Assembly (NCBI GenBank): GCA_021787985.1
Contig: JAJYLG010000015.1
Coordinates: 1-48,342, forward strand
DNA: 48,342 nucleotides
Origin: Chloroflexota bacterium
GTDB lineage: Bacteria > Chloroflexota > Dehalococcoidia > DSGV01
Direction of reading: 5' to 3'
Below are positions 134-23,572 of this stretch, piece after piece. The notes under the pieces were generated by a model that was given only the letters and a program-made list of their open reading frames with translations, was not told the DNA's origin and did no database searches. Both the position numbers and the translations under genes were made by a program. How positions within the stretch are numbered: the first letter of the stretch is position 1; each line of letters begins with the position of its first letter.

Positions 134-188
134 GGTTGCGGACATGAAGTGTACTCTTGAGGTACATCAATCCAATATGGAGGTGGTC

Positions 189-725
189 ATGGCCGATCCC
201 GAGATCGAGGCGATGTCCGCTGTGGCGACTGCCGTGGCGGCCCTGCAGGAGGACGAACGCGACCGAGTCTTGCGATGGGCGGCGGAGCGATACGGCGTGA
301 CCCTGGGCAGGAGCTGTGGTCGTCGCGGGGCTGCAGGTGGTGGAGGGGCGGCTGATGACACTGCGAGAGGCGACGTGACGGAGGATGAGATCGCCGCCGA
401 GGCTCCCGAGTTCGAGCACTTCGCCGAGCTCTTCGCGGCGGCCCAGCCGAAGACGAACGAGGACAAAGCGCTTGTGGCGGCGTACTGGCTGCAGGAAATC
501 AAAGGGCAGAACAAGTGGCAGGCCGCTTCTCTGCAGACGGAACTCAAGAACACGGGCAATGCCATCGCGAACATTACGGACGCTCTTAGCGGCAACATGC
601 GGCAGAAGCCCCCGCGCATCATCCAGTTGCAGAAGTCGGGTAGCGCCAGGCAGGCACGCAAGACGTACAAGGTCACTCGCGAGGGCCTCGGTTATGTCCA
701 GCTCATGCTCGGCCACGGTGGCTGA
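189..725 (+). CDS. Hypothetical protein with winged-helix-like C-terminus, partner of HEPN gene
   Basis: Unknown function, 178 residues. The start at 189 is chosen because GGAGGTG lies just upstream; an in-frame ATG at 144 has no such site. The N-terminus (residues 1-37) is a helical segment rich in A, E and R (EAMSAVATAVAAL, then RVLRWAAERYGV). A Gly/Ala-rich low-complexity linker runs to about residue 65. The C-terminal ~90 residues (KALVAAYWLQ, then LQTELKNTGNAIANITDAL, then KTYKVTREGLGYVQLML) look like a winged helix with a wing and a terminal helix. From memory, proteins of this layout occur as uncharacterised accessory genes in many bacteria; I cannot name a family. The next gene starts one base after its stop, so the two are almost certainly co-translated. 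The role may be regulatory or an adaptor for the HEPN partner. Confidence 0.7.
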   Translation: MADPEIEAMSAVATAVAALQEDERDRVLRWAAERYGVTLGRSCGRRGAAGGGGAADDTARGDVTEDEIAAEAPEFEHFAELFAAAQPKTNEDKALVAAYWLQEIKGQNKWQAASLQTELKNTGNAIANITDALSGNMRQKPPRIIQLQKSGSARQARKTYKVTREGLGYVQLMLGHGG

Positions 726-726
726 C

Positions 727-1503
727 GTGGGACTCGCACCAGAGGACGCCTTCTCGGCCTTGCCGGCCAGTCTGCGCGACGACCTGCTGATGGCGTTCAA
801 CGAGATCGTCAAGAACTACCGCGAGCACAAGTGGGAGCCGTCAGAGCTAAACGGCGGCAAGTTGTGCGAGGCGGTATACACAATCACCGAGGGCTGGCTG
901 GAGGGCCACAAGTACCCAAAGCGCGCCAAGAAGCCCAATCAGTTCCCGGACACTTGCTGGGCTCTGGCGCAGAAGTATGCGCATGTCCCTGACAGTAGGT
1001 CGCCCAGGATCTTGATCCCACGCATGATGATCGGCTTGTACGACATCCGCAACAACCGTGGGGTGGGACATGCGGGTGCCGAGGTGGACCCGAACCACAT
1101 GGACGCGACGATCGTGCTGTACACGGCCAAGTGGCTGATGGCTGAGTTGGTTCGGCTACTGCACACCCTCACGACGCAGGAGGCCACCGCGATCGTCGAC
1201 GGGCTCATTGAGCGTGAGGTCACGTGGGTGTGGACGCACGGGGACAAGAAACGTGTCCTCCGCACCGGCATGACCTGGAAGCAGCAGACCCTTGTACTGC
1301 TCCTGACGGAACCGGGTGACGTCGCCGAGGCGGACTTGTTCCAGTGGCTGGAGCACCCCGGGATGCAGAGTTTTCGGAAGGACGTCTTGAAGCCGCTGCA
1401 CAAGACGCGGCAGGCCGAATACGACACGGACAAGCGGACCATTCGGTTGCTTCCGCCAGGCGTGACGGCCGCCGAAACGCTCGTCGCCAACATCTCGTCG
1501 TGA
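727..1503 (+). CDS. HEPN-motif protein with C-terminal winged-helix-like domain
   Basis: Predicted 258 residues from GTG 727; ATG 694 and GTG 718 are alternatives that would overlap the previous gene. Residues 15-145 are helical and carry LYDIRNNRGVGHAG, in which R108 and H115 form the R-N-x5-H pattern typical of HEPN RNases and of HEPN domains in abortive-infection and toxin proteins. The C-terminal ~100 residues (MTWKQQTLVLLLTE, then LFQWLEHPGMQSFRKDVLKPLH) look like a winged helix. The protein is likely cytosolic; no signal peptide or membrane helix is seen. With the preceding gene it makes a two-gene unit. A defence or toxin-like role is inference from the motif and from its position beside a truncated gene. 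A catalytically silent HEPN scaffold is possible. Confidence 0.65.
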   Translation: MGLAPEDAFSALPASLRDDLLMAFNEIVKNYREHKWEPSELNGGKLCEAVYTITEGWLEGHKYPKRAKKPNQFPDTCWALAQKYAHVPDSRSPRILIPRMMIGLYDIRNNRGVGHAGAEVDPNHMDATIVLYTAKWLMAELVRLLHTLTTQEATAIVDGLIEREVTWVWTHGDKKRVLRTGMTWKQQTLVLLLTEPGDVAEADLFQWLEHPGMQSFRKDVLKPLHKTRQAEYDTDKRTIRLLPPGVTAAETLVANISS

Positions 1504-1847
1504 TGCGCGAACTTCGGTGCGCTCAATGCCGAAGGTTCGACCCCGAATGGGGACATGCTTGACCACGCGATGGCCTGGTGCGCCGCAGGTCCGTTTCGAC
1601 CGCCGCCAGGTCCACCCGGGACGGGCAGTGATGGCGCAACCGATAGGCCTGCTACTGGCACGCCCGTGAGCAGTACAGCATCCGCACCGATCTCGGGAGT
1701 GCCGTGCAGACGGGGCAGGGCCGCACTACCGTGCGTGACGCTGCGCGTGACGGTTGGTGGCTCATGCCCCGCTCCCGTGGCTTTGGGCACTGGCAGCCAG
1801 CTTGTCTTTGAGTCGGTAGCTCGGCCCTCGGCATTCCCGACCCGGTA
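1504..1847. other. Gene-poor junction between the HEPN pair and a truncated dppC
   Basis: No convincing gene is seen in these ~340 bases. Open frames exist but have no family resemblance and no good ribosome-binding site. The segment joins the island-like pair to the broken dppC, so it probably holds the recombination junction. No direct repeats, integrase or transposase ends were recognised. Confidence 0.5.
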
Positions 1848-2096
1848 TTGATGGCCACGATCCAGCTCGGTGCGGCCATCCTTGCCGAGGCTAGCCTCTC
1901 CTTCCTCCAGTTCGGCATCCCAGACCCGGTGCCGAGCTGGGGGCGGATGCTGAGCGGCATCGCCCAGGCGCGCGTCCGAACGGACCCCTGGCTCTCGGTC
2001 TGGCCGGGGCTTTTCATCGCCCTGGCTGTATTCGGCTTCAACATGCTGGGCGACGCGCTGCGCGATGTGCTCGACCCGCGGCTGCGCGGGGGGTGA
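1848..2096 (+). pseudogene. dppC C-terminal remnant (dipeptide/oligopeptide ABC permease)
   Basis: This frame encodes about 80 residues that match only the end of DppC/OppC-type inner-membrane permeases: a LGAAILAEASLSFL segment, PSWGRMLS, a last hydrophobic helix and the family-typical terminus LGDALRDVLDPRLRGG. A full protein has roughly 290 residues, so the N-terminal two thirds, including most membrane helices and the EAA loop, are absent. It resembles the end of the intact permease at 25329-26225 but is clearly diverged, so it is not a fresh duplicate of that gene. It looks like a gene cut by recombination when the left-hand island arrived. Confidence 0.8.
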
Positions 2097-2204
2097 CAGT
2101 GCTCCCCGGCTGACCATTCCAGTCATGACCGGCATCCCGGTGCCCGAGCTGGCGGAAGCGGTGCCCCCCTGCCTGCCGGCGGGAGGGCGGCGCACCGACC
2201 GCGG

Positions 2205-2618
2205 TCAGATCGTCCGGGTGGCGCGCCGCAGATCGGCCAGGTGCCTGACGGTGCCAACGATCTCGGCCGCTTGCGCCCCCGGGCCGAAGACCGCGGCCAC
2301 ACCCTTCCGGATGAGGGCCTGCCGGTCGGACTCGGTGATAACGGAGCCACCGACCACGACGGGCACGTGGGTCGGCTCTTCCGCGAGCCGCCGAAGCAGC
2401 TCGTCGATGTGGTAGATGTACTCCCATGAGTGGCAGCTCACGCCGACCACGTCCACGTCCTCATCGACCGCCGTGGTGGCGATCCTCTCCGGCAGGTTGA
2501 AGCGACCCAGGTAGATGACCTCCACGCCCGCGTCGCGCAGGATCCGCGCGACGGCCAGCGCCCCCGTTTCGTGCTGGTCGAGGCCCAGGATGGCGATCAA
2601 TGCGCGGACAGGTTCCAT
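2205..2618 (-). CDS. B12-binding small subunit of acyl-CoA mutase
   Basis: This 137-residue protein is the cobalamin-binding subunit of a methylmalonyl-CoA-mutase-type enzyme. It carries the DxHxxG motif (D14, H16, G19), whose His is the lower axial cobalt ligand, followed by ALAVARILRDAGVEVIYLG and the VVVGGS segment that binds the nucleotide tail. The start at 2618 is favoured by an upstream GGAGAGGG; a longer in-frame start at 2654 would almost abut the preceding gene. It lies 40 bases after the catalytic subunit and is probably the last gene of the left catabolic arm. The split two-subunit layout is like isobutyryl-CoA and 2-hydroxyisobutyryl-CoA mutases. Confidence 0.9.
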   Translation of the reverse strand: MEPVRALIAILGLDQHETGALAVARILRDAGVEVIYLGRFNLPERIATTAVDEDVDVVGVSCHSWEYIYHIDELLRRLAEEPTHVPVVVGGSVITESDRQALIRKGVAAVFGPGAQAAEIVGTVRHLADLRRATRTI

Positions 2619-2658
2619 CGTGCGCTGCCCTCTCCAAACTTTCTCCGGGCGCACCGGC

Positions 2659-4263
2659 TCAGAGCGCGGCCGCCGCCACGCCGAAGGGGTCGTACGCGGA
2701 ACCGTACGCCATACGCAGCGCGCCGGAGATCTCGCCCAGCGTGGCCCCCGCCTCCATGGCGGCGATGATCGGCCGCATCAGGTCCTCCCGCTCGGCCTTC
2801 GCCGCTCCCAGGACGCCCTGCAGCGCGGCCGCCACGCCCGTCTGGTCGCGGCTGCCCTTGAACTCCTTGATGCGCTCGACGTGGTCCCAGCACGGCTCGA
2901 TCTTGGTAGCCGCGAGCTCCTTGAGCAACGTGTCGTGCTCCTCCGCCATGCGGAACATGTTGACGCCGACGCGAGGGAGCGTCCCGTCCTGGATGGCGCG
3001 CTCCTGCCGCACCATGGCTTCCTCGAACAGGCTTCGGAACCAGCCTCTCTCGCAGAGGTCGAGCGGGCCGCCGAGCGCCTCGATGCGGTCGGTCATCTCG
3101 CCAATGCGCCGCTCGATTTCGCCGGTCAAGTGCTCGACATAATACGAGCCGCCGAGCGGGTCGGCCACCTGTCCCGCGTTGCTCTCGTACTGCACGACCT
3201 GCTGGGTGCGCAGGGCAACGAGGTGCGACTCCGGGCTGGGAGTCCGGTAGGCCTCGTCGAAGGCCGAGATCTCGACCGCCTGCACGCCCGCAAGGGCGAG
3301 CGCCAGCGCCTGGATCGCTCCCCGAATGACGTTGTTGACCGGCTGCTGCGCGGTGAGAGAGCTGCCGGCGGTGTGCGCGGTGATGTTGACGGACCAGGAA
3401 CGCGGATCCTTCGCGCCGAACTCGTCGCGCATCATGCGGGCGAAGAGGCGGCGGGTCGCGCGGATCTTGGCGATCTCCTCGAAGAAGTCCATTCGGCAGT
3501 TCAGCAGGATCGCGATCCGGGGGGCGAAACTGTCGATGTCGAGCCCGCGTTTGAGGAGCTCGCGCACGACCGCGCGGATCTCGATGAAGCCCAGCGCCAT
3601 CTCCTCGACGGCGTCCGGCCCGCCATCGCTGATGTAGTAGGTGTCTTCCACGAAAGAGTGGAACTTGGGCATCTCGCGCGTGCAGAACGCGATCGAGTCG
3701 AGCGTCAGCCGCAGGCGCAGGCTCACCGGCATATGGGTGCGGTAGCCGTAGTCCTCGCAGTAGAGCGGCGTCTGGATCACGGAGCCCCGCAGCACCGCGG
3801 GCGACACGCCGCGGGCCTTGGCGACCGCGTAGAGCCCGGCCACCGCGAACCATCCGGGGAGCGAGTGGGAGAGCGTAATGCGATCGAGCGGAATGCCATC
3901 GTACAGCTCGAAGAAGTCGTCGAGCCGACTCAAAGAGACGCCCTGGGTGCCCACGGCGTTCAGCGCATAGGGATGGTCCGGGTCCAGGCAGGCGGTGGTC
4001 GGGGCATCGCCGATCACATCCAACCCCACGGCCCCGGTTTCGATCAGGTAGCGGAACTGGGCGTTCGACCGCGACGGCGGGCCTTCACCGGACAGCTCAC
4101 GCTGGATCCACGAGTCACGCCGAGCGGGGTCGGACCGACGGCCACGCGTGTACGGGAAGGCTCCCGGGTCGTTCAGCGCGGCGCCGTTGTCCAGGTCGGC
4201 CACGTCCCCCGATGTGTAGAACGGCTTGAGCGGGATCTTGGACTGCGTCTCGAGCTCGGTCAT
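2659..4263 (-). CDS. Divergent B12-dependent acyl-CoA mutase, large subunit
   Basis: This 534-residue protein is a TIM-barrel catalytic subunit of the methylmalonyl-CoA mutase family, which rearranges acyl-CoA carbon skeletons by adenosylcobalamin radical chemistry. Family hallmarks are present: DFFEEIAKIRATRRLFA (residues 259-275), an NxxAHTAGSSLT-like segment (residues 293-304), and LRTQQVV and DPLGGSYYVE (residues 351-377). Substrate-site hallmarks are not. The usual RGxYPTMYxxRxWT region reads RGRRSDPARRDSWIQR (residues 40-55), so the substrate tyrosine is missing. The conserved GYHxxEAG reads TYYISDGG (residues 208-215), replacing the radical-shielding histidine with tyrosine. It therefore probably acts on a substrate other than methylmalonyl-, isobutyryl- or 2-hydroxyisobutyryl-CoA. 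It overlaps the upstream SDR gene by four bases. Confidence 0.85.
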   Translation of the reverse strand: MTELETQSKIPLKPFYTSGDVADLDNGAALNDPGAFPYTRGRRSDPARRDSWIQRELSGEGPPSRSNAQFRYLIETGAVGLDVIGDAPTTACLDPDHPYALNAVGTQGVSLSRLDDFFELYDGIPLDRITLSHSLPGWFAVAGLYAVAKARGVSPAVLRGSVIQTPLYCEDYGYRTHMPVSLRLRLTLDSIAFCTREMPKFHSFVEDTYYISDGGPDAVEEMALGFIEIRAVVRELLKRGLDIDSFAPRIAILLNCRMDFFEEIAKIRATRRLFARMMRDEFGAKDPRSWSVNITAHTAGSSLTAQQPVNNVIRGAIQALALALAGVQAVEISAFDEAYRTPSPESHLVALRTQQVVQYESNAGQVADPLGGSYYVEHLTGEIERRIGEMTDRIEALGGPLDLCERGWFRSLFEEAMVRQERAIQDGTLPRVGVNMFRMAEEHDTLLKELAATKIEPCWDHVERIKEFKGSRDQTGVAAALQGVLGAAKAEREDLMRPIIAAMEAGATLGEISGALRMAYGSAYDPFGVAAAAL

Positions 4264-5102
4264 CCCCGCACCTCCGTGTCGCTCTGCCCGCCCGCGCCGC
4301 CACGCGCGCCGTACGGGAACATCTCTGCCAGGCCCCTGCGGCTGTTGACGAAGCCCACGTTGAGCCCCATGCCTCCGTCGACCGGCACCAGCGCGCCGTT
4401 GATGAACCCGGCCTCATCCGAAGCGAGGAATACGATGAGCGCGGCCACCTCGCCCGGCTCGCCCAGCCGCTTCGTCGGAGTTGACTCGATGGCGTGCTCG
4501 AGGAGCTCGGGCGGCATCGCGCGCACATTCGGCGTCGCGATCAGTCCCGGCAGGACCGCGTTGCAGGCGACCCCGTGACCCGCGTACTCGAGCGTGACGG
4601 TCCGCGTGAGACCGAGCAGCCCCGCCTTGCTGGCCGCGTAGCCCGCCTGCCGGTGGAGCCCTCCGACGGCGGCCATGGACGAAACATTGATGATACGGCC
4701 CCATCCGCGCTCGGCCATCGGCACGATGACCTCTCGGATCATGTTGAAGGCGCCGGTGAGGTTGACCGCAAGCTCGCGCTCCCACGCGGACAGCGGCATT
4801 CCCGTAATCGAGCCGATATTGTTCACGATGCCGGCGTTGTTGACCAGCACGTCGATCTGCCCGAGCCTCTGGCGGATCCGCTCGACCCCGTCGTGGACCG
4901 CGGCCGCTTCCGCGATGTCGAACATTTCCGCTGCCGCCCGCCGGCCCAACCTCTCGACGGCATCCGACGTCTCGTGGACCTTCCCGTCCCGATCTACCAG
5001 CCCCACGTCCGCGCCCGCTTCGGCGAGCAGCAGACTCGTAGCTCGTCCGATACCGCCGGCGGCGCCGGTGACGAGCGCCACTCTGCCGTTGAGTCCACCC
5101 AT
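4260..5102 (-). CDS. SDR family oxidoreductase
   Basis: This 280-residue classical short-chain dehydrogenase probably oxidises a hydroxyacyl-CoA or alcohol with NAD+. TGAAGGIG is the dinucleotide loop, LVDRDG has the acidic residue that favours NAD+, and NNAG, then SSMAA and YAASK supply the catalytic Ser-Tyr-Lys. It extends ~25 residues past the usual C-terminal GGMGL segment. ATG 5102 is preceded by GGAGGG at four bases' distance; GTG 5105 is an alternative. It shares an ATGA overlap with the mutase large subunit, so the two are translationally coupled and the SDR may act just before or after the rearrangement. Confidence 0.85.
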   Translation of the reverse strand: MGGLNGRVALVTGAAGGIGRATSLLLAEAGADVGLVDRDGKVHETSDAVERLGRRAAAEMFDIAEAAAVHDGVERIRQRLGQIDVLVNNAGIVNNIGSITGMPLSAWERELAVNLTGAFNMIREVIVPMAERGWGRIINVSSMAAVGGLHRQAGYAASKAGLLGLTRTVTLEYAGHGVACNAVLPGLIATPNVRAMPPELLEHAIESTPTKRLGEPGEVAALIVFLASDEAGFINGALVPVDGGMGLNVGFVNSRRGLAEMFPYGARGGAGGQSDTEVRG

Positions 5103-5157
5103 CACGCCCTCCTCGTTTCAGCGCCTCCCACTCGCCGCCGGGGAGGCGCAAGCCCCA

Positions 5158-5419: not shown

Positions 5420-6199
5420 CTACTCGAGCAGACTCCAACCTCCGTCGGCGATGATGACCTGGCCCACGATCCAGTCGGCGTCGGGGCTGCACAGGAACGC
5501 GATCACGCGTGCTATCTCCTGCGGCGAGGCGACCCGCCCCCGCGGCGTGCGCCGAACCCACTCGCCGACGGCTTCCGCATACCCACCCTCGTAACGGCCG
5601 GCCGCGTACGTCCGCGCCGACCCGGTATCGACAAACCCCGGCAGCACGGCGTTGACGTTGATGCCGTGGGGCGCGAGCTCGACCGCTAGATAGCGAGTGA
5701 GCGTTTCGAGCGCTGCCTTGGCCGCCGCCAGCACACCGTGCCCGCGCATCACGCGGACCGTGTCGATGCCGGAGACCGTCACGATGCTGCCGCGGCGACC
5801 CGCCATCAGCGGTACGGCCCCCTGCACCAGGAGGAGCGCCGAGTGCACCACGGTCTGCATCGTAAGCGCCACGTTGTGCGGCTGGGCGTCGAGCAGCGGC
5901 TTGAATGCCGTTGACGCCGCGTTCGCGACGAGCACGTCCAAATGGCCGAGCTCGCGCTCCACGACCCGCATCATGGCGCGGACCTCATCCTCGGCGGCGA
6001 GATCCGCGCGCACCACCAGTGCCCGCCGGCCCAACTCGCGCGCCTCCCGCGCCGCCGCCTCTGCCTCGGCGGCGTCTCGTCGGTAGTGCACGACCACGTC
6101 GGCCCCGCGCTCCGCCAGCAGGCGCACCGTCGCGCGCCCGATGCCACGCGAGCTTCCCGTGACGAGCGCGACCTGCCCATCGGACCGCGGCTCGCTCAT
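5420..6199 (-). CDS. FabL-like SDR lacking the catalytic tyrosine
   Basis: This 259-residue protein resembles FabL-type enoyl reductases: KAALETLTRYLAVELAPHGI and a C-terminal GQVIIADGGWSLLE are very like that family from memory. TGSSRGIG binds the dinucleotide, and HYRRD suggests NADP(H). The active site is unusual. The segment RVMRGHGVLAAAKAALE has His at the position of the FabL tyrosine (Tyr-x6-Lys) and Leu at the classical SDR position (Tyr-x3-Lys). Either the histidine replaces tyrosine as proton donor, or the protein is a non-catalytic or altered reductase. It sits 24 bases before the BadI-like gene's stop, in the same operon. An enoyl-CoA reductase role is inference. Confidence 0.75.
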   Translation of the reverse strand: MSEPRSDGQVALVTGSSRGIGRATVRLLAERGADVVVHYRRDAAEAEAAAREARELGRRALVVRADLAAEDEVRAMMRVVERELGHLDVLVANAASTAFKPLLDAQPHNVALTMQTVVHSALLLVQGAVPLMAGRRGSIVTVSGIDTVRVMRGHGVLAAAKAALETLTRYLAVELAPHGINVNAVLPGFVDTGSARTYAAGRYEGGYAEAVGEWVRRTPRGRVASPQEIARVIAFLCSPDADWIVGQVIIADGGWSLLE

Positions 6200-6223: not shown

Positions 6224-7018
6224 CTACCGCCGGAAGCGGCCGAAGTCGGGCTTGCGACGCTCGACGAAGGCATTGCGGCCCTCGACCGCCTCGTCGGTGC
6301 CGTAGTAGAGCGCCAGCGATGACATGCCGAGCCCGCCGATGCCTTTGATGTGAGCCGTCTCGGCATTGAACGAGATCTTGGCGATCTTGAGCGCGGTGGG
6401 GCTCATCGCCAGGATCTCGCGCGCCCACTCGCGCGCCTCGTCCATCAGGCGGTCAGCCGGCACCACCGTGTTCACCAGGCCCATCTCGAGCGCCTCTTGC
6501 GCCGAGTACTGGCGGCACAGGTACCAGATCTCCCGCGCCTTCTTCTCGCCGACGACGCGAGTCAGGTAGGCCGTGCCGAAACCGGGGTCAACGCTGCCCA
6601 CCTTTGGCCCCACCTGGCCGAAGCGAGCCGTGTCCGCCGCCATGCTCAGGTCGCACAGCACGTGCAGCACGTGCCCGCCGCCGATCGCGTAGCCGTTCAC
6701 GGCCGCGATGACGGGCTTCGGGATGTCGCGGATGATCTCGTGCAGGTCCTCGACGTCCATCCCGATATCGGAGCGAGAGGGCTTCCCCTGGTAGCCGCCT
6801 TCGCCGCGCACCGACTGGTCGCCACCGGCGGAGAAGGCCCGCGTGCCGGCGCCCGTCAGGATGACGGCGCCGACCGTACGGTCGAGCCACGCGTCTTTGA
6901 AGGCCTCGACCATCTCGTCCACGGTCTGCGCCCGGAAGGAGTTCAAGACCTGCGGCCGGTTGATCGTGATGGTCGCGATCCCGTCTTCCTTCTGGTAGAT
7001 GATGTCTTCGAAGTCCAT
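6224..7018 (-). CDS. badI: BadI-like 2-ketocyclohexanecarboxyl-CoA hydrolase (MenB-type crotonase)
   Basis: This 264-residue crotonase belongs to the MenB/BadI branch. GGDQSVRGEGGYQGK (residues 65-79), GYAIGGGHVLHVLCDL and KKAREIWYLCRQYSAQEA are shared with MenB. MDFEDIIY at the start, FGQVGPKVGSVDPGFGTA (residues 133-150) and SPTALKIAKISFNAETAH fit my memory of BadI, which hydrolytically opens the 2-oxocyclohexane ring to pimelyl-CoA. There are no other menaquinone genes nearby, while BadH-like, BadK-like, ligase and dehydrogenase genes are, which supports the ring-cleaving role. An AAAGGA sequence precedes the ATG. A MenB-type condensing function is the main alternative. Confidence 0.75.
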   Translation of the reverse strand: MDFEDIIYQKEDGIATITINRPQVLNSFRAQTVDEMVEAFKDAWLDRTVGAVILTGAGTRAFSAGGDQSVRGEGGYQGKPSRSDIGMDVEDLHEIIRDIPKPVIAAVNGYAIGGGHVLHVLCDLSMAADTARFGQVGPKVGSVDPGFGTAYLTRVVGEKKAREIWYLCRQYSAQEALEMGLVNTVVPADRLMDEAREWAREILAMSPTALKIAKISFNAETAHIKGIGGLGMSSLALYYGTDEAVEGRNAFVERRKPDFGRFRR

Positions 7019-7054: not shown

Positions 7055-8206
7055 CTAGCGGTACGGCATGTAATCGCGCCCGATGACCTCGCGGGCGATG
7101 ATGCCCTTCATGATCTCCGGCGTGCCATCGCCGATCTCCAGCCCGATGGCGTCGCGCAGGCGCTGCTCGAACGGGAGGTCCATGTTGTAGCCGTAGTGGC
7201 CGTGCAGCCAGATGCAGGCGTGGATGGCGTCGACCGCGACCTTCGGCCCCAGCCACTTGGCCATCGCCGCCTCCTTGGTGTGCGGCTCTCCCTGGTCCCG
7301 CTTCCACAGGCACTCGTACGCCAGCAGCCGCGCCGCCTCTACCAGTGTCAGGTGCTCGGCGAGCTGGAACGAGACCGCCTCGTGCTTCGCCAGCGGCCGG
7401 CCGAAGCTCTGCCGCTCCTTCACGTAGGCGATCGTCTCGTCCAGCGACTGCTCGGCCGCGCCCACGCAGGCCAGCGCGATCACGGCGCGGTTGTAGTCGA
7501 AGGCGCCCATCGCCTGGTAAAACCCTTTGCCTTCCGCGCCGAGCAGATGGTCCGCCGGCACGCGCACCTGGTCGAAATACAGCGAGCCGCGCTGCGTCAG
7601 TCGCTCACCGGGACTGCGGTAGACCTGTCGCGTCACCCCCGGGGCGTCCAGCGGCACGAGGAACGTGCTCACCCCGTGCGCACCCTCGCCGCCGGTGCGG
7701 GCGAAAACGGCACAGGCGTCGGCGTAGCCGGCGAAGGTGATGGAGGCCTTCTCTCCCGAGATGACGTACTCGTCGCCGTCGCGCACGGCGGTGGTAGTCA
7801 GGTTGGCCGCGTCGGACCCGGCGGCTGGCTCGGTCAGCCCGAAGGCCGCCAGCGCGCTGCCGTCGGCCAGCCGAGGGAGCCAGACCCGCTTCACCGCCTC
7901 TCGCGCGTGCTGCCCGATCAGCTCGCTGCCGATGCTGTAGAGCTGGACAAACAGCGAGTAGTTGAAGTCGCCGCGGGCCAGCTCCTCAGCGGCGATGCCC
8001 AACATCACGTAGTGCGCGTCGGCGCCCCCGTACTCCGCTGGCACCCGCAGCCCCGTGATCCCGAGCTGGGCGAGCTCGGCCACCCGCTCGCGGGGAAAGG
8101 GCTCGCCGCGGTCCCAGGTCGCGTAGTCAGGCTTCAACCGCTGCAGGGCGAACCGCCGCACCGTCTCCGCGAACAGCCGTTGCTCATCGCTCAAGGCGAA
8201 ATCCAT
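7055..8206 (-). CDS. Acyl-CoA dehydrogenase (AliB-like by context)
   Basis: This 383-residue FAD-dependent acyl-CoA dehydrogenase forms an alpha,beta double bond in an acyl-CoA and passes electrons to an electron-transfer flavoprotein. FGLTEPAAGSD is the FAD/substrate loop and RQSFGRPLAKHEAV is the dimer/FAD segment. At the usual catalytic Glu position the motif reads GDGTPEIMK, with Asp360. Asp at this position is also known in ACAD10/11-like and some cyclic-acyl dehydrogenases. The gene lies between a BadI-like hydrolase and two CoA ligases, so cyclohexanecarboxyl-CoA dehydrogenase is the most economical guess. Confidence 0.85.
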   Translation of the reverse strand: MDFALSDEQRLFAETVRRFALQRLKPDYATWDRGEPFPRERVAELAQLGITGLRVPAEYGGADAHYVMLGIAAEELARGDFNYSLFVQLYSIGSELIGQHAREAVKRVWLPRLADGSALAAFGLTEPAAGSDAANLTTTAVRDGDEYVISGEKASITFAGYADACAVFARTGGEGAHGVSTFLVPLDAPGVTRQVYRSPGERLTQRGSLYFDQVRVPADHLLGAEGKGFYQAMGAFDYNRAVIALACVGAAEQSLDETIAYVKERQSFGRPLAKHEAVSFQLAEHLTLVEAARLLAYECLWKRDQGEPHTKEAAMAKWLGPKVAVDAIHACIWLHGHYGYNMDLPFEQRLRDAIGLEIGDGTPEIMKGIIAREVIGRDYMPYR

Positions 8207-8268: not shown

Positions 8269-9953
8269 CTACGACTCGGCGCGCAGCCGCTGAGCGCGCT
8301 CCCGCAGCTCGTAGCGCATGATCTTGCCAGTCGGCGTCATCGGCAGGGCCTCGATGAGCTCGACACGCTCAGGCCACTTGTACTTCGCCAGTCCCCTCTC
8401 CGCCAGGAATGACCGCAGATCCTCCAACGTGAACGTCTGACCCGACCGCGGCACGATGAAGGCACACCCCCGCTCGCCGAGGCGCTCGTCGGGCATCGCC
8501 ACGACGAGCGCGTGCTCGACCTTCGGGTGGGTGTACAGCAGCTCCTCCACCTCGCGCGGGTCCAGCTTCTGGCCGCCGCGGTTGATCATGTCGTCCATGC
8601 GCGCTACGAACGTGAAGGTGTGGTCGGCGTTCCTGGTTATCAGGTCGCCGGACATGAACCAGCCGTCGGCGTTGTAGCGGGCGGAGACGAACTGCGGCTG
8701 ACGGTAGTACCCGGGCGAGAGGTTAGGCCCGCGGCCCCAGAACTCGCCCGTCTCACCTGCCGCGACCGGCCGGCCATCGCTGCCTACGACCTCGGACTCC
8801 CAGCCGGAGACCGTCCGCCCGACGGTCACGCTTGTGACCCCCAGCGGATCGTCAGGACTCGAATGGGTGTGGGCCAGTCCCTCTGTCCAGCCGTAGAAGA
8901 CGGCCAGCCCACAGCCCAGGCGGTCGTGCAAGCGCCGCAGGATGTCCACCGGGCACGGTGCGCCAGCGTACATCATGAACCTGAGGGCGGAGAGGTCCCG
9001 CCGCCCCAACTCTTCGCTGCGGGCGACGTCGATCAGCATGGGCGGTGCGCCGACGAAATGCGTGGCCCGATACTGCTCCGCCAGCTCGATGCCCTTCTGG
9101 ACGTCCCACGCCTCCAGCAGCACGACCGAGCCGCCCGCGACCAGCGCCCCCGTGAGGAACGGGATGCCGAATGCCGTGAGGTGAGTGATCGGCGTCACCA
9201 TCAGCCAGCGGTCGTCCGGTGTGAATCCGAACGCTTCCACGTACTTGCGGGCGCCGGCGATCAAGTTGGCGTGGAGATGCATGACGCCCTTGGGTCGGGC
9301 GGTGGTCCCCGACGTGAACATGAGCACGAAGAGGTCAGTCGATACCGGAGGCTCCGCCGCCGGCGGCCGACCCTGCCCGGACTCGAGCAGCTTCTCGAAC
9401 GCCAGAGTGCCCTCCTGCGCGGCGCCCTGCCCACGCACGACGATGACGTCGCGCAGGGCTGGAAGCTTCGCCCGCACCTGCCGCGCGAGCGCCGCGTGGT
9501 CGGTCCCGCGGTACGTGTCGGGAACCAGCACACCCCGGGCCTCCGTCAGGCCAAGGATGTACTCCATCTCGAAGGCTCGGTACGGCGTATGGATGAACGT
9601 CGGGCGGACGCCGATGCGCCCGGCGCCGAGGACCGCCACGCAGAACTCGGACCAGTTCGGCAACTGCATTCCCAGGCAGTCGCCCGGAGAATAGCCGAGG
9701 TCGATCAGCGCGGCGGCGACCGCGTCGCTGCGGACCTTCAGCTCTTGCCAGGTCAGCGTCGTCCCGTCCTGGTCGATGAGCACCGGCGCCTGTGGCCGTT
9801 CCCGCGCATGGCGGTCCAGCAGCTCGAGAACCGTATCGAGAGACCAGCCGCCAGACCGCAGGAAACGCTCGGCCGTCTCGACCGAGATGTGGGTGTCGTC
9901 ACGGGCCGCGAGCTCGCGGGCTCGGGCGAGCGCGTGCTCGAGCGTCAGGGTGG

Positions 9954-9957
<4 letters not shown>
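8269..9957 (-). CDS. AMP-forming acyl-CoA ligase
   Basis: This 562-residue ANL-superfamily ligase activates a carboxylic acid via an acyl-adenylate to a CoA thioester. TSGTTARPKG (residues 215-224) is the phosphate loop, YGWTEG the A5 motif, and SGDLITRN and PTGKIMR contain the hinge and catalytic Lys545. The start is GTG 9957, which overlaps the stop of the next ligase gene; GGGAGGAGG lies 8-10 bases upstream. Coupling with a second ligase suggests either two related substrates or a heteromer. Fatty, aromatic or alicyclic acids are all possible; the neighbouring Bad/Ali-type genes favour an alicyclic acid. Confidence 0.9.
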
Positions 9958-11615
<1,658 letters not shown>

Positions 11616-11649: not shown

Positions 11650-12438
11650 TCACCGGCCCGAGAACGTCGGGCCGCGCTTCTCTAGGAACGCCTGCATGCC
11701 CTCTTTGCGGTCTTCGGTGCCGAAGAGGAAGGCCACGGCTTGCCGCTCCGCTTCGACACCGGTCTTCAGGTCGGCGTTGACGCCCGCATGCACCAGCAGC
11801 TTGGCCGAGCGGAGCGCGAGCGGCGGCAGCTCCGCCAGCCGCCTTGCCCAGGTGAGCGCCGTCTCCAGCACCTGCTCGTGCGGGACCACCGCATTGACCA
11901 GCCCGTGCCGTAGCGCGTCAGCGCTGGACAGCGGCTCGCCGAAGTACACCATCTGCTTCGCGATTGCGGGCGGCAGCATGTGGGCCAGCCGCTGCGTGCC
12001 CCCGGCGCCTGGCAGCACGCCGATCTTGATCTCGGGCACGCCGATGCCCGCGGCCTCCGCCATGATGCGCAGGTCGCAGGCCAGCGCTAACTCGCAGCCG
12101 CCGCCGTACGCCAGACCGTTGATCGCCGCGATCGTCGGGCGGTCCAAGTCCTCGAGCGCGTTGTAGGTCGCCTGGATCCGCTCGATGAAGCGCAGGAAGT
12201 CCGGCGGCCCACCGAGCTTCACCAGCTCGCTGATGTCGGCCCCGGCCGAGAAAGCGCGCCCCTCGCCGGTGAACACCAGCGCACGGACGTCCAGGTCCTC
12301 GCGCACCCGCTCTATCACGGCCTTCAGGTCTTGCACCATCTGGGGACTGATGGCGTTGAGCCGCTGTGGCCGGTTGAGCCGCACGAGCGCTACCCCGCCG
12401 TCGCGCACGTAGGTCAACGTCTGATACTCGTCAGGCAT
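11650..12438 (-). CDS. Enoyl-CoA hydratase (BadK-like)
   Basis: This 262-residue crotonase adds water to an enoyl-CoA. Both catalytic glutamates of the hydratase type are present: GGGCELALACD and VPEIKIGVLPGAGGTQRL. FSAGADISEL forms the oxyanion-side loop. The GLAYGGGCELALACD block and the FLEKRGPTFSGR end resemble BadK, the cyclohex-1-enecarboxyl-CoA hydratase, from memory. It lies 8 bases after the BadH-like gene, matching consecutive pathway steps. General beta-oxidation hydratase is the alternative. Confidence 0.85.
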   Translation of the reverse strand: MPDEYQTLTYVRDGGVALVRLNRPQRLNAISPQMVQDLKAVIERVREDLDVRALVFTGEGRAFSAGADISELVKLGGPPDFLRFIERIQATYNALEDLDRPTIAAINGLAYGGGCELALACDLRIMAEAAGIGVPEIKIGVLPGAGGTQRLAHMLPPAIAKQMVYFGEPLSSADALRHGLVNAVVPHEQVLETALTWARRLAELPPLALRSAKLLVHAGVNADLKTGVEAERQAVAFLFGTEDRKEGMQAFLEKRGPTFSGR

Positions 12439-13248: not shown

Positions 13249-14478
13249 TTACTCCGGCGGGAACTCGATCGCCTCCGTCGCCAACATCTGCCCGATCTCC
13301 TCGTCGGAGAGGCGCAGCACCTCCCGCATCACGTGCTCGGTATGCTCAGCGATCTTGGGAGCACGATCCAGCCTGCCCGGCGTCTTCGAGAAGTGGGACA
13401 TGAACCCGTCGTAGGGCGCCGCCCCGATCACGGGATGCTCCGGCCACTCGAAGAAGCCCCAGTGGCGGATGTGCGGGTCCTCGTGGAGATCGGACATCCA
13501 CAGGACGGCGCCGGCAGGTACTCCGACGGCCTGCAGCCTGGCCATCGCCTCCTGCGGAGAGAGCTGGCGAGTCCACGCTGCGATCAGCTCCTCGATGGCC
13601 CCCTCGTGCTCGCGACGTCGCGCCGCGGTGGCGTACGCCGGGTCGCTCGCCAGCTCATCCCGCTCGATGACGCGACACAGGCCCTTCCACTGCTCGTCGG
13701 TAAAGACGGCGATGGCCACCCAGCGGTCCTCGCCGCCGCAGGGGAACACGCCGTGAGGGATCGCGCGATCGTCACGGTTGCCCTTGCGCACGGCGACCCT
13801 GCCGTTGGCCGTGTAGTCAAGCACGGCAGCGCCTTGGCAGAGGATGCCCACCTCCATCTGGGAGGTGTCGATCCACAGCCCACGGCCGGTACGACGCCGT
13901 CGGTCGAGCGCCGCCGCCAGGAGAGCGACGTTGAAGTGCGGCGTGAGCATGTCGGTGTAGGCGCCATAGACGACCACCGGCGGGCGGTCGGGCCAGCCCG
14001 TGACGTTGTAGTATCCGGCGAGCGCCGCGGCCTGCGTGCCGTAGCCGGCATAGAGGTTGTAGGGCCCGGTCTGGCCCATCTGTGACGTGCTCAGCATGAC
14101 CAGGTCCGGCCGGTCACGCGACAGATCCTCGTAGTGCAGCCCCCAGGCCCGCATCTGCTTGGGCGTGTAGCCCTCCACCACGACATCTGCCCATTCGACC
14201 ACCAGCCGGCGCGCCAGCGCGCGGCCGGTCTCCGTGGCGAGATTGAGGCCCACACTCAGCTTGCTCGAGTTGTAGTCGGCCCAGAACTGGCTGCGGTTGA
14301 TCCCCGGCTTCCCCCCGGCGAACGGGCCAGCGAGCCGCAGGACGTCCGGCCTCTGGGTCGACTCCACGCGGATGACGGTCGCCCCGTGGTCCGCCAGATG
14401 CTTGGCCGAGATCGGCCCCACGCCGACCCAACCGAAATCCACGACCTTGATCCCATCGAAGATGCGCCGCGTCGTCAT
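13249..14478 (-). CDS. CaiB/BaiF class III CoA-transferase with catalytic Asp
   Basis: This 409-residue family III CoA-transferase moves CoA from a donor thioester to a carboxylate through an aspartyl intermediate. The N-terminal KVVDFGWVGVGPISAKHLADHGATVIRVES is the CoA-binding start. Asp176 (GAYTDMLTP) sits at the catalytic position. The C-terminus is FDxx-free and ends in a HTEHVMREVLRLSDEEI segment typical of the family. It overlaps the upstream paralogue by four bases, and that partner lacks the Asp, so a heteromer with one catalytic subunit type is likely, as I recall for benzylsuccinate CoA-transferase BbsEF. Confidence 0.85.
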   Translation of the reverse strand: MTTRRIFDGIKVVDFGWVGVGPISAKHLADHGATVIRVESTQRPDVLRLAGPFAGGKPGINRSQFWADYNSSKLSVGLNLATETGRALARRLVVEWADVVVEGYTPKQMRAWGLHYEDLSRDRPDLVMLSTSQMGQTGPYNLYAGYGTQAAALAGYYNVTGWPDRPPVVVYGAYTDMLTPHFNVALLAAALDRRRRTGRGLWIDTSQMEVGILCQGAAVLDYTANGRVAVRKGNRDDRAIPHGVFPCGGEDRWVAIAVFTDEQWKGLCRVIERDELASDPAYATAARRREHEGAIEELIAAWTRQLSPQEAMARLQAVGVPAGAVLWMSDLHEDPHIRHWGFFEWPEHPVIGAAPYDGFMSHFSKTPGRLDRAPKIAEHTEHVMREVLRLSDEEIGQMLATEAIEFPPE

Positions 14479-15764
14479 GTCCCCGCCTCTCCAATGACAC
14501 CCGCTTCAGACAGCTCCGCGAGCCGCTCCCGCGAAATGCCCAGCTCTTCGACGTAGACCTCGCGGTTGTGCTCGCCAATGCGCGGCGCCCGCCGGCGCAC
14601 CCCGACGCGACCTTCGCTGAGCAGCGCCAGGTGACCCGGATAGCGGAACGATGCCGCAAGCTCCGGGTGGTCAACCTCGACGAAGAAGCCGCGGGCGTTC
14701 GGCTGAGGGTGTTCCACCATGTCGCGCACGTCGTTGACCGGTGCGATGAGGATGCGCTCTCGATAGGCGCGGTCGAAGAGCTGCTGCTTTGTCTTGCCCA
14801 GGAAAAAGCGGGCAAGAGACGTTTCCATCACTTCGACCTCTTTCTGCGCCTCCGGGTCGTACATGTACTTGCCCATGTCCATACCGGCCCAGTCCTTCTC
14901 GAGCATGAGCCGGGGCGCCGTGCCCTCCTCGTCGAGCCAGCGCGTGAGGGCGGTCATCGACGTGGCGCCCGGAGTACCGCCGAGGAAGAAGAAGTAGACG
15001 TAACCGTCCTTGCAGGGATAGATCGCCCGCACCTTGACCGTTCCGAGTGCGGTGAAGTATCCGCCGCCGCGGCGCACCTCGGTCCCGTGCAGCCTGGGGA
15101 ACGGAGCGGCGTTCATGAGCTGCCACTGCGCCACCGCGAGCGCGGACACGTCCACCTGCTGGCCCTCGCCGGTCAGTCCCCGGTGGTAGAGTGCCATGGC
15201 GGTCGCCGCGGCGGCCTCGGCGCCGGTCTTCGTGGCCACCATCGGCACGCTGACGCGCGTCGGAGGTCGATCCGGGTCGCCGGACAGGTAGAGGAAGCCG
15301 GACAACGCTTGCAGCACGAGGTCGCTGCCGACGTACTCGCCATAGGGGCCATCCGGACCGAAGGGCGTGATCGTGGTCAGCACGATGTCGGGCTTCCGTC
15401 GCGCCAACTCCTGGTACGAGAGACCCAGTTCGCTCAGGCGCCGTGGGTGTAGCGTGGTGACCACCGCGTCGGCGGTCTCCACCAGCCTCAGGAACAGCTC
15501 GCGCCCGTCGGGGTGGACGACGTCCAGGGTGATGCTCCGCTTGCTCGTGTTGAAGGCGAGCCAGAAGAGACTGCCTTCCGGGTGTGGGTCGTCCCGGAAA
15601 AAGGGCCCGATACCGCGCGCCGAACTTCCGCCGGGGGGCTCGACAATGATGACGTCGCCGCCCATGTCGCCCAGCATCTTGCCGCACATCTGTCCGTGCT
15701 CGTCGGTCAGGTCCAGGACCCGGTACGGGAACAAGGACTCCTCCGCGCTGGTACCCCGCGCCAT
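14475..15764 (-). CDS. CaiB/BaiF CoA-transferase paralogue lacking the catalytic Asp
   Basis: This 429-residue family III CoA-transferase-like protein starts at 15764, behind GGGGGAGAG; the longer open frame upstream has no ribosome site. It has the family N-terminus (YRVLDLTDEHGQMCGKMLG) and RGIGPFF and NTSKRSITLDV segments. Where the catalytic Asp should be, the sequence reads SVPMVATKTGAEAA (residues 172-185), with Ala/Thr instead. It is therefore probably a non-catalytic subunit paired with the 13249-14478 product, to which it is translationally coupled. The 140 bases upstream, to the dehydrogenase at 15905, hold no clear element. Confidence 0.85.
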   Translation of the reverse strand: MARGTSAEESLFPYRVLDLTDEHGQMCGKMLGDMGGDVIIVEPPGGSSARGIGPFFRDDPHPEGSLFWLAFNTSKRSITLDVVHPDGRELFLRLVETADAVVTTLHPRRLSELGLSYQELARRKPDIVLTTITPFGPDGPYGEYVGSDLVLQALSGFLYLSGDPDRPPTRVSVPMVATKTGAEAAAATAMALYHRGLTGEGQQVDVSALAVAQWQLMNAAPFPRLHGTEVRRGGGYFTALGTVKVRAIYPCKDGYVYFFFLGGTPGATSMTALTRWLDEEGTAPRLMLEKDWAGMDMGKYMYDPEAQKEVEVMETSLARFFLGKTKQQLFDRAYRERILIAPVNDVRDMVEHPQPNARGFFVEVDHPELAASFRYPGHLALLSEGRVGVRRRAPRIGEHNREVYVEELGISRERLAELSEAGVIGEAGT

Positions 15765-15904
15765 ACCGTTGCTCTCCCCCTTCCCCCGTTGTCTGTCTCG
15801 GTGGTCCGAGCCCGGACCGTCCGGGTCATCGCCGTCGAGGGACCAGCGAGACCGCGCCGGCCCGTGCCCGCGCACGGCGTGCCGTCAGTATGCCAGCCGC
15901 GCCC

Positions 15905-22165: not shown

Positions 22166-23395
22166 TCAGAAGCCCACATCGCCGTTCAGCAGGCGGTGGG
22201 CGATGGTGCGTCGCATGATCTCCTGGCTGCCGTCGGCGATGCGCACGATACGGAGCTGGTGGAGCGCGTCGTAGAGCTTCACCTCGTTGGTGAGGCCCAT
22301 GCCGCCGAACGCCTGGATGCAGCGGTCGATGGCACGGAAGCCGGCCTCGGTGGAGAAGGCCTTGACCATCGCCACCTCCTTCACCGCCTGCTCTCCGCGC
22401 TCGAGCTTCCAGGCGCAGTGGATGCTCATCGTCCGCGCGGCGTAGATCTCCATGGCCGAGTCGGCCAGCAACCACTGCACCCCCTGGTACTCGGCGATGG
22501 GATGACCGAAGGCGACCCGCTGCTTGGCGTACTCGGCGGCGCGCTCTATCGCCCAGCGCCCCAGACCGACGGCACGCGCGGCGTTGTAGAGCCGGCCGTT
22601 GTTCACGCCCGCGAGCGCGAGGCGGAAGCCCTGGTGGAGCTCGCCGACCAGCCGATCGGCAGGGACGCGCAGGTCAGTGAAGCTCAGGATGCCCTCCATC
22701 CCGCCGACGTGCCCGAAGAGCCGGATCACGCTGTCGACCGAGAAGCCAGGCGAGGCGGTGTCGACGAGGAAGCAGGAGACGCCTCCCTTGCGCTGCGCCT
22801 GCATCGCCGGGTCGGTGACGGCGAATAGGAGCGCATGTTCCGCGTAGGGCGAGTAGCTGATCCATTGCTTGCTGCCGTTGATCACCCAGTCGTCGCCGTC
22901 CCGAACGGCGCGCGTTTTCATCGACCACACATCCGACCCGGCGTCCGGCTCGGACAGGGCGAAGCAGGAGAAGTGCTCACCGGACATGAGCTGTGGCAGC
23001 ACCCGCGCACGCACCTCCGGGGTCACGTGCCGCAAGATGGCACTCGGGCCGGTCGCCCAGTGGGCGACGGCCTGGTACGGCAGGTGTCGAGCGGGCCCCG
23101 CGTGGTGGTAGAGCGCCTCCCAGATCAGGAAGAGCGTCAGAGGGCCCTGCCCGCCTCCGCCCAGGTCCTCCGGCACCATCAGGGTGTAGTACCCGGCCCG
23201 GCTGGCGGCCGCGCGAACGCGCCGGTACAGCTCCACGACCTCTGGAACCAATCGCCCGTCCGGCTGGTACGTGGCGTGGCCGTCATCGAGCAACGCCTGG
23301 TTGTTACGCTCCAGCGGCACGACCTCGCGTTCGATGAACTGGAGCAGGCCGTTGATCGTGAGCTGCAGCTCGTCCGAGATCGTGAAATCTACCAT
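22166..23395 (-). CDS. Acyl-CoA dehydrogenase (ACAD10/11-like)
   Basis: This 409-residue acyl-CoA dehydrogenase has ALSEPDAGSDVWSMKTRAVRDG, RVAFGHPIAEYQGVQWLLAD and the C-terminal RIADGSQEIMRR, where Asp388 occupies the catalytic base position as in ACAD10/11-type enzymes. ATG 23395 has GGGAGAGG upstream. It is the first gene of the left arm, diverging from gntR; the 177 bases between the two starts hold the gntR promoter and the shared 21-base element, but I see no good -35/-10 pair for this direction. Confidence 0.85.
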   Translation of the reverse strand: MVDFTISDELQLTINGLLQFIEREVVPLERNNQALLDDGHATYQPDGRLVPEVVELYRRVRAAASRAGYYTLMVPEDLGGGGQGPLTLFLIWEALYHHAGPARHLPYQAVAHWATGPSAILRHVTPEVRARVLPQLMSGEHFSCFALSEPDAGSDVWSMKTRAVRDGDDWVINGSKQWISYSPYAEHALLFAVTDPAMQAQRKGGVSCFLVDTASPGFSVDSVIRLFGHVGGMEGILSFTDLRVPADRLVGELHQGFRLALAGVNNGRLYNAARAVGLGRWAIERAAEYAKQRVAFGHPIAEYQGVQWLLADSAMEIYAARTMSIHCAWKLERGEQAVKEVAMVKAFSTEAGFRAIDRCIQAFGGMGLTNEVKLYDALHQLRIVRIADGSQEIMRRTIAHRLLNGDVGF

Positions 23396-23485
23396 CGCCT
23401 GCCTCTCCCTAGCCGGCTGCCCGCCGCCGTGCGGTCGAGCGCGTGACGCCGAGAGGATACCGCACTGCGCTGCAAGCTTCCCGGT

Positions 23486-23506
23486 CAAATTCACTGGCCA
23501 TCGACA
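23486..23506 (+). repeat. 21-base element, copy in the gntR upstream region
   Basis: This matches positions 113-133 with one mismatch (T for A at the fifth base). It lies immediately upstream of the gntR -35 box, between the two divergent transcription units, a place where an activator or repressor site would act on both. Confidence 0.4.
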
Positions 23507-23522
23507 ACCCGCAGGCAAACTG

Positions 23523-23551
23523 TTGACGGTCCAATGTTCCGATCTTATACT
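23523..23551 (+). promoter_or_regulatory. Predicted sigma70-type promoter of gntR and the right arm
   Basis: TTGACG (23523-23528), a 17-base spacer and TATACT (23546-23551) make a near-consensus housekeeping promoter. The transcript would start about 15 bases before the ATG at 23573, which is preceded by GGGAGG. A short TTG-N6-CAA dyad overlaps the -35 box (23523-23534) and could be part of a GntR site. Confidence 0.75.
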
Positions 23552-23572
23552 CCGGCCCATCTGGGAGGCGCC

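What the first reader, a model, noticed from the sequence alone, without database searches (positions are those of the whole stretch)
2205..4263. B12 acyl-CoA mutase with rebuilt substrate site
The large subunit keeps the family scaffold but has lost the TMYxxRxW substrate motif (it reads RSDPARRDSWIQR) and the radical-shielding His of GYHxxEAG (it reads TYYISDGG). The small subunit retains a perfect DxHxxG. Known mutases (methylmalonyl, ethylmalonyl, isobutyryl, 2-hydroxyisobutyryl) keep the His. Next to an alicyclic-acid gene set, a new carbon-skeleton rearrangement, for example of a cyclic or branched acyl-CoA, is possible.
Basis: partly seen in the sequence, partly recalled or inferred. 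Interest (0 to 1): 0.68.

Follow-up and report, generated by a model that had tools for sequence, protein, structure and literature searches.

The report
Uncharacterised B12 mutase with rebuilt pocket
This is a real, conserved but never-studied branch of the vitamin-B12 enzymes that move a carbon group within acyl-CoA molecules; its reaction pocket has been rebuilt and it comes with a dedicated partner dehydrogenase, so it probably rearranges a molecule that no known enzyme of the family handles.

Summary
The finding is real. Window 2659-4263(-) and 2205-2654(-) encode both subunits of an MCM-family B12 mutase. The large subunit has Tyr where MCM has His244. One correction: MCM's substrate Tyr89 is not in TMYxxRxW but in RQYAG. 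Leu57 is there here, as Ile90 is in 2-hydroxyisobutyryl-CoA mutase (HCM). The changes are not decay. About 22 orthologues (51-65% identical) in Chloroflexota, Rokubacteria, Myxococcota, Pseudomonadota and Actinomycetota share them: Tyr or Phe at 244; Leu89; R207, Q197, R326, H328, Q330 and N366 replaced; Asp at 114, His at 330; Glu370 kept. Their small subunits keep DxHxxG but lose Lys604. The clade is monophyletic (100/100); an AU test rejects grouping with HCM (p=2.6e-6), and it is separate from MCM, IcmF and presumed ECM and ICM. Its sister branch also lacks the His. The predicted fold matches HCM (Z 38). Eight loci have a short-chain dehydrogenase (SDR) gene just upstream; in 393 same-class genomes it occurs only beside this mutase. 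The alicyclic-acid genes are real but specific to this window. Best reading: an AdoCbl acyl-CoA mutase for a non-dicarboxylic, probably hydroxylated acyl-CoA, passing its product to the SDR. Substrate and activity are unproven.

The parts
2659..4263 (-). mutL: large (TIM-barrel, substrate-binding) subunit of the B12 acyl-CoA mutase, 534 aa
   Evidence: PF01642 445 bits; best PDB match HCM 4r3u; orthologues in several phyla
3634..3636 (-). codon for Tyr210 at MCM His244 (Tyr or Phe in all 21 clade members)
   Evidence: gap-free alignment and residue table
4093..4095 (-). codon for Leu57 at MCM Tyr89 / HCM Ile90 (Leu in all 21 clade members)
   Evidence: residue table
4018..4020 (-). codon for Asp82 at MCM Ser114 (Asp in all 21 clade members), two residues before the position of HCM Asp117
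   Evidence: residue table
2205..2654 (-). mutS: small, cobalamin-binding subunit, 149 aa; DxHxxG kept (DQHETG), MCM Lys604 replaced by Ile, CHSWEY in place of SxLSGAH
   Evidence: PF02310 and TIGR00640 above cut-off; clade signature; HCM small subunit keeps the Lys
4260..5105 (-). SDR_a: NAD-type short-chain dehydrogenase, translationally coupled to mutL (ATGA overlap); dedicated partner
   Evidence: adjacent orthologue in 8 loci; in 393 same-class genomes found only in 4, all with this mutase; catalytic Ser and YxxxK present
5420..6199 (-). SDR_b
   Evidence: Pfam and NCBIfam
6224..7018 (-). BadI/MenB-like ring-cleaving or ring-closing crotonase
   Evidence: TIGR03210 375 bits (cut-off 467.6), TIGR01929 menB 344 bits (cut-off 342.7)
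7055..8206 (-). cyclohexanecarboxyl-CoA dehydrogenase-like acyl-CoA dehydrogenase
   Evidence: TIGR03207 410 bits, below cut-off 575
8269..9957 (-). acyl-CoA ligase A
   Evidence: AMP-binding family
9954..11615 (-). cyclohexanecarboxylate-CoA ligase-like ligase B
   Evidence: TIGR03208 552 bits, below cut-off 792
11650..12438 (-). enoyl-CoA hydratase
   Evidence: PF00378
12447..13208 (-). BadH-like 2-hydroxycyclohexanecarboxyl-CoA dehydrogenase
   Evidence: TIGR03206 323 bits, below cut-off 431
13249..15875 (-). two CoA-transferase family III genes (13249-14478 and 14475-15875)
   Evidence: PF02515
15905..17065 (-). second acyl-CoA dehydrogenase (assigned by eye from its sequence and by its homologue)
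   Evidence: open frame on the same strand; 69% identical homologue near the orthologue in L048

Best explanation
mutL and mutS form a two-subunit adenosylcobalamin-dependent acyl-CoA mutase of a conserved, uncharacterised clade of the methylmalonyl-CoA mutase family. As in its relatives, CoA should lie along the barrel and Co-C homolysis should start a 1,2-shift of the CoA-thioester carbon (inferred from fold and family). The acyl end of the pocket is rebuilt: the carboxylate-binding Arg207 and Tyr89 are Ser/Gly and Leu, His244 is Tyr/Phe, and Asp82, the Glu206-Asp207 pair and His297 are new. The substrate is therefore most likely not a malonyl/succinyl-type dicarboxylyl-CoA but a neutral acyl-CoA with a polar group, most likely a hydroxyl. 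The product, a 3-hydroxyacyl-CoA, would be oxidised by the dedicated SDR, as HCM is paired with a 3-hydroxybutyryl-CoA dehydrogenase. In this operon it could turn an alpha-blocked (tertiary) alicyclic 2-hydroxyacyl-CoA into a 2-hydroxycycloalkanecarboxyl-CoA that BadH/BadI-like enzymes can open. Shown here: predicted fold, clade, residues, partner gene. Inferred: cofactor use, hydroxylated substrate, pathway position.
For: Both domains match their Pfam families. The predicted fold matches HCM (Z 38.2, 499 residues, 2.6 A) and MCM. About 22 orthologues from several phyla keep the rebuilt residues at 51-65% identity, and the clade has 100/100 support. Glu370 is invariant in all 147 mutases sampled; the barrel-lining Ser/Thr at 164, 166 and 195 and Arg283 are kept, which supports a CoA channel. 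All 21 orthologue loci carry the small subunit next door with DQHE. MeaB, the mutase chaperone, is a neighbour in L068 (Pfam hit) and in the orthologous gene of L066. The host genome has MeaB and a CobA-type adenosyltransferase. SDR_a is found in 4 of 393 genomes, all four with this mutase (6 of 393 carry it), and adjacent in 8 loci. HCM plus an SDR-type dehydrogenase is a published pairing (PMC8084838).
Against: No activity is known for any member. Lys604 and most adenosine- or substrate-contact residues are changed, so the catalytic details may differ. Some orthologues lack SDR_a and sit next to other genes: CoA ligase with ketopantoate reductase, ECH, MeaB. The clade does not group with HCM, so hydroxyacyl chemistry is an analogy. 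Asp82 is not at the same position as HCM Asp117.
Confidence: 0.45

Rival explanations
1. An AdoCbl acyl-CoA mutase for a hydrocarbon (non-hydroxylated) branched or alicyclic acyl-CoA, of the pivalyl/isovaleryl or isobutyryl/butyryl type, for example a quaternary alicyclic acid turned into a cycloalkylacetyl-CoA; the SDR acts later, in beta-oxidation.
For: Loss of Arg207 and Tyr89 removes the carboxylate site. IcmF is known to accept pivalyl-CoA (PMC10481361). The operon carries a full bad/ali-like gene set.
Against: The pocket gains polar and acidic residues (Asp82, Glu206, Asp207, His297) where a hydrocarbon substrate would favour apolar ones. SDR_a is tied to the mutase across phyla, the bad-like genes are not.
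Confidence: 0.25
2. A mutase or other B12 radical enzyme that acts on an amino- or otherwise cationic acyl substrate, or uses a metal ion held by the new acids and histidines.
For: Invariant acids at positions 114, 205, 240 and (20 of 21) 241, invariant His at 330 and 236, loss of Arg207 and Arg326. Aminotransferase class V is a neighbour in L059.
Against: The charge shift was large only on a partly post hoc residue list (-4.5 against +3.4 in MCM). On an unbiased list of strand ends it is small (-6.5, HCM -6.0). CoA-ligase and ECH neighbours point to ordinary acyl-CoA chemistry.
Confidence: 0.12
3. An ordinary methylmalonyl- or ethylmalonyl-type mutase that tolerates sequence drift.
For: Family-level HMM TIGR00641 passes its cut-off (400 against 303.8 bits).
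Against: MCM equivalog far below cut-off (336 against 876). Arg207, Tyr89, Gln197 and His244 are all lost together and kept lost across phyla. Genomes that carry it have separate canonical mutases.
Confidence: 0.05
4. A catalytically dead or regulatory mutase-like complex.
For: Loss of His244 and Lys604, which every solved mutase in the comparison keeps.
Against: Invariant Glu370, DxHxxG, conserved partner genes, MeaB neighbours and strong conservation. PDB holds MCM H244A as a folded enzyme (1e1c); from general knowledge it keeps some activity.
Confidence: 0.08

Closest known systems
2-hydroxyisobutyryl-CoA mutase HcmAB (Aquincola tertiaricarbonis, PDB 4r3u)
   Same: Separate large and small subunits, best sequence and fold match, non-Tyr at 89 (Ile90 against Leu57), non-Arg at 207, paired in some bacteria with an SDR-type 3-hydroxyacyl-CoA dehydrogenase
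   Different: HCM keeps His245 (MCM 244), Arg328, His330, Gln332, Asn368, Asp117 and small-subunit Lys604; grouping with HCM is rejected (p 2.6e-6)
Methylmalonyl-CoA mutase (P. shermanii 1req/4req/5req, human 2xij)
   Same: Fold, Glu370, Tyr243, CoA-channel Ser/Thr, DxHxxG
   Different: Window lacks Tyr89, Gln197, Arg207, His244, Arg326, His328, Gln330, Asn366 and Lys604
Isobutyryl/pivalyl-CoA mutase IcmF and two-subunit ICM-type enzymes
   Same: No Arg at 207, neutral acyl-CoA substrates
   Different: They keep His244, Gln197 and Gln330; IcmF is fused to its G-protein
Ethylmalonyl-CoA mutase (inferred from architecture in L154, L159, L160)
   Same: Also lacks Asn366 and His328, so those losses have precedent
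   Different: Keeps His244, Tyr89 and Arg207; single-chain
Benzylmalonyl-CoA (phenylsuccinyl-CoA) mutase IaaGH (PMC8360864)
   Same: B12 mutase for a bulky ring-bearing CoA ester
   Different: Dicarboxylyl substrate; sequence not available here, so not placed in the tree
His-less paralogues of the same bacterial class (L004, L043, L011, L012)
   Same: Sister branch, no His244, His at 330 in three of four
   Different: Asp or Asn rather than Tyr/Phe at 244, Arg326 and small-subunit Lys604 kept, 38-42% identity; also uncharacterised

Membership tests
Methylmalonyl-CoA mutase superfamily (PF01642, class I AdoCbl mutases) | PF01642 barrel over gathering score | tested here: met
   445 bits, cut-off 22.1; fold Z 36-38 to MCM/HCM
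Methylmalonyl-CoA mutase superfamily (PF01642, class I AdoCbl mutases) | B12-binding domain with DxHxxG | tested here: met
   PF02310 81 bits; DQHETG, DQHE in all orthologues
Methylmalonyl-CoA mutase superfamily (PF01642, class I AdoCbl mutases) | AdoCbl-dependent 1,2-shift of a CoA-thioester group | not testable with these tools
   needs enzyme assay
Methylmalonyl-CoA mutase (EC 5.4.99.2) | NF006944 equivalog cut-off | tested here: not met
   336 bits against 876
Methylmalonyl-CoA mutase (EC 5.4.99.2) | Tyr89, Arg207, His244 | tested here: not met
   Leu57, Gly173, Tyr210
2-hydroxyisobutyryl-CoA mutase | clade with HcmA | tested here: not met
   AU test p 2.57e-6
2-hydroxyisobutyryl-CoA mutase | Ile90, Asp117 and His245 (A. 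tertiaricarbonis numbering) | tested here: not met
   Leu57, Ile84, Tyr210; an Asp stands two residues earlier (Asp82)
Fused isobutyryl-CoA mutase IcmF | NF045497 cut-off and fusion to a G-protein | tested here: not met
   170 bits against 1500, separate 534-aa subunit
Ethylmalonyl-CoA mutase | grouping with the single-chain ECM-type enzymes; His244, Arg207 | tested here: not met
   separate supported clades; residues lost; ECM identity of L154/159/160 itself inferred
Benzylmalonyl-CoA mutase IaaGH | grouping with IaaGH | not tested
   no identified IaaG sequence in the collections used
Cyclohexanecarboxylate (bad/ali) pathway, for the operon | equivalog cut-offs TIGR03206, 03207, 03208, 03210 | tested here: not met
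   323/431, 410/575, 552/792, 375/467.6 bits: relatives, all below cut-off

The most novel reading that the evidence does not exclude
A B12 acyl-CoA mutase that has done away with the catalytic or shielding His244 kept by the characterised family members compared here, with a histidine on strand 7 (His297, MCM 330) and acids on strands 2, 4 and 5 taking over. It would catalyse an unknown rearrangement, for example of an alicyclic tertiary 2-hydroxyacyl-CoA to a ring 3-hydroxyacyl-CoA, that opens alpha-blocked ring acids to degradation.
Probability: 0.2. Interest if true: 0.75.

Novelty: new variant of a known kind. Interest (0 to 1): 0.52.

Why it matters
Only a handful of B12 acyl-CoA mutases have a known substrate, and His244 is taken (general knowledge of MCM) to shield or protonate the radical. 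A conserved clade without it, with its own small-subunit signature and its own dehydrogenase, would widen the reactions and the mechanism of the family. In 2024 rational first-shell changes in an HCM scaffold gave only inactive enzyme (PMC11599936), so natural rebuilt pockets would be useful starting points. It would also help explain how soil and marine bacteria break down recalcitrant branched or ring acids.

Tried and rejected
Numbering error of my own: and in the column called Y89, Tyr89 was taken to be the Tyr of TMYxxRxW; corrected with the 5req (Y89F) sequence. Rescue of the His by a shifted alignment: rejected; the 244 block is gap-free in sequence and Tyr210 follows strand 5 of the model. 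Charge inversion of the pocket: strong on a hand-picked list, weak on an unbiased list, so not used as main evidence. His swap (His330 in place of His244): 26 of 27 sequences with His330 lack His244, but the independent-pairs test has too few independent changes; kept as a lead. Alicyclic pathway as the clade-wide partner: rejected; BadH/BadI orthologues 66-84% identical occur in genomes whose loci show no such mutase, and most orthologues lack bad genes nearby. No paper on His-less mutases found. A search of 296 genomes in the class of the Streptosporangiaceae isolate gave no further orthologue. IaaGH and RcmA could not be placed in the tree for want of identified sequences.

Full report
What is there. 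On the minus strand the window holds mutL (2659-4263, 534 aa) and, four bases downstream, mutS (2205-2654, 149 aa). mutL is PF01642 over its full length (445 bits) and mutS a B12-binding domain. The start of mutL overlaps the stop of the SDR gene just upstream by four bases (4260-5105). The cluster continues upstream on the same strand with SDR_b, a BadI/MenB-like crotonase, a cyclohexanecarboxyl-CoA dehydrogenase relative, two CoA ligases, an enoyl-CoA hydratase, a BadH relative, two family III CoA-transferases and an acyl-CoA dehydrogenase, then a thiolase, an SDR, a hydratase and another dehydrogenase up to about 24.8 kb. The bad/ali models are the best or near-best hits for four of these genes, but all lie below the curated cut-offs, so the pathway resembles cyclohexanecarboxylate degradation without being shown to be it.

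The residues. Numbering was fixed with the P. shermanii MCM sequence of PDB 5req, the Y89F mutant, so that F89 lies in RQFAG. Against MCM the window has L57 at 89, D82 at 114, I84 at 116, G85 at 117, I163 at 197, G173 at 207, E206-D207 at 240-241, Y209 at 243, Y210 at 244, D213 at 247, R249 at 283, N293 at 326, T295 at 328, H297 at 330, S333 at 366 and E337 at 370. In the 21 clade members the fixed states are L89, D114, I116, G117, Y243, H330 and E370; position 244 is Tyr (16) or Phe (5). In the 126 other mutases sampled, E370 is invariant, position 326 is Arg or Lys in 121 and 244 is His in 91. The region around Gln197-Arg207 is less surely aligned (low model confidence at 170-172), but neither residue is conserved there in the clade. 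Loss of Asn366 and His328 also has a precedent, in ECM-type sequences. Loss of His244 has none among MCM, HCM, IcmF and the presumed ECM and ICM sequences compared.

Clade and distribution. A search of 393 same-class genomes found close orthologues in five besides the window (51-65% identity). A scan of 84,980 species genomes gave some 20 loci, several of them the same records, from Chloroflexota, Rokubacteria, 'Deltaproteobacteria' (Myxococcota in the lineage printed by the tree tool), Rhodospirillaceae, Gammaproteobacteria, a Streptosporangiaceae isolate and Solirubrobacterales. Two exact peptide patterns were used there, so the count is a lower bound. The maximum-likelihood tree puts them in one clade (100/100) on a long stem. 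The next branch, with L004, L043, L011, L012 and the long-branched L007, also lacks His244 (99/90). Holding the clade together with HCM costs 75 log units (AU p 2.6e-6). MCM, IcmF (equivalog hit over half its length) and ECM-type references lie elsewhere.

Small subunit. The orthologues share a DQHE motif (mostly LGLDQHE) in place of KxGLDGHD, with Ile, Leu, Met, Thr or Val where MCM has Lys604, and mostly CHSWEYL in place of SxLSGAHL. The HCM small subunit keeps the Lys (AKVGLDGHDRG). Both subunits were thus remodelled together.

Structure. AlphaFold2 with 22 rows gave pLDDT 78.8, pTM 0.82. VIA-align: HCM Z 38.2, 2.6 A over 499 residues; MCM Z 36-37, including the H244A mutant 1e1c. Tyr210 follows strand 5 (201-205), Asp82 lies in strand 2 (80-85), and His297 ends strand 7 (293-297).

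Partner genes. mutS lies directly downstream of mutL in all 21 orthologue loci. An SDR 54-62% identical to SDR_a lies directly upstream in eight loci including the window. In 393 same-class genomes SDR_a orthologues occur in four, all among the six that carry the mutase (hypergeometric chance about 1.5e-8, my calculation, although three of the four are one family and not independent). SDR_a has the SDR catalytic Ser and YxxxK and an Asp after strand 2 that suggests NAD. MeaB lies divergently upstream in L068, with an orthologous gene in L066. CoA ligases, hydratases or a ketopantoate reductase are neighbours elsewhere. The host genome encodes MeaB twice and a CobA-type adenosyltransferase; no PduO-type was found.

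Mechanism. The retained features (Glu370, Tyr243, Arg283, barrel Ser/Thr, DxHxxG, MeaB) argue for AdoCbl radical chemistry on a CoA ester. The lost Arg207 and Tyr89 argue against a second carboxylate on the substrate. A dedicated dehydrogenase argues for a hydroxyl on substrate or product. The published parallel is acetone and 2-hydroxyisobutyrate degradation, in which HCM forms 3-hydroxybutyryl-CoA and a dehydrogenase, in one organism of the SDR family, oxidises it (PMC8084838; PMC7176365). For the window's operon, an alicyclic tertiary 2-hydroxyacyl-CoA giving a ring 3-hydroxyacyl-CoA for BadH/BadI-like steps would fit; this is inference.

Limits. No assay, no coordinates, no RcmA, IaaG or experimentally proven ECM/ICM sequence in the tree. 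The roles given for MCM residues (Tyr89, Arg207, His244, Lys604 and so on) rest on general knowledge of the MCM literature, not on papers read here. The association with alicyclic genes rests on this one operon. The large number of other His-less paralogues in the same bacterial class means that loss of His244 is a wider, unstudied trend and not unique to this gene.

Noticed in passing
G007, G026, G058, G040, G021 (loci L082-L129): Genomes of this Chloroflexota class carry up to 13 or more mutase large subunits each; 35 of 126 non-clade mutases sampled lack His244 (Asn, Asp, Gln, Ser, Val, Cys, Leu, Pro, Gly or Ile instead). A large unexplored family expansion.
   Followed up: partly
G000 contigs C10, C13, C25, C26, C31, C53, C152 (L001-L007): The window's own genome has seven mutase large subunits; besides the window's, those on C13 (L004, LYDL), C53 (L007, AYDL, MeaB nearby) and C25 (L005, ARNI) also lack His244.
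   Followed up: partly
L081, L099, L134 and relatives: A separate mutase clade has an insertion before the position of Trp in TMYxxRxW; most members keep GYHxREAG.
   Followed up: no
L139 (Shinella plasmid peSHIWSC3, 4434-9970): HCM-like large subunit (60% to HcmA) with small subunit, MeaB, enoyl-CoA hydratase and CoA ligase: a probable plasmid-borne hydroxyacyl-CoA mutase cluster.
   Followed up: no
window 22835-31596, +: Divergent set of ABC-transporter permeases, CoA-transferases and a thiolase facing the minus-strand catabolic cluster; likely the uptake and second half of the same catabolic island.
   Followed up: partly
window 939-2195 (-) and 144-725 (+): Open frames next to mutS without any Pfam match.
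   Followed up: no
L175, L176, L177: A conserved BadH-BadI-like pair (66-84% identical to the window's) in other genomes of the class, without the mutase nearby.
   Followed up: partly
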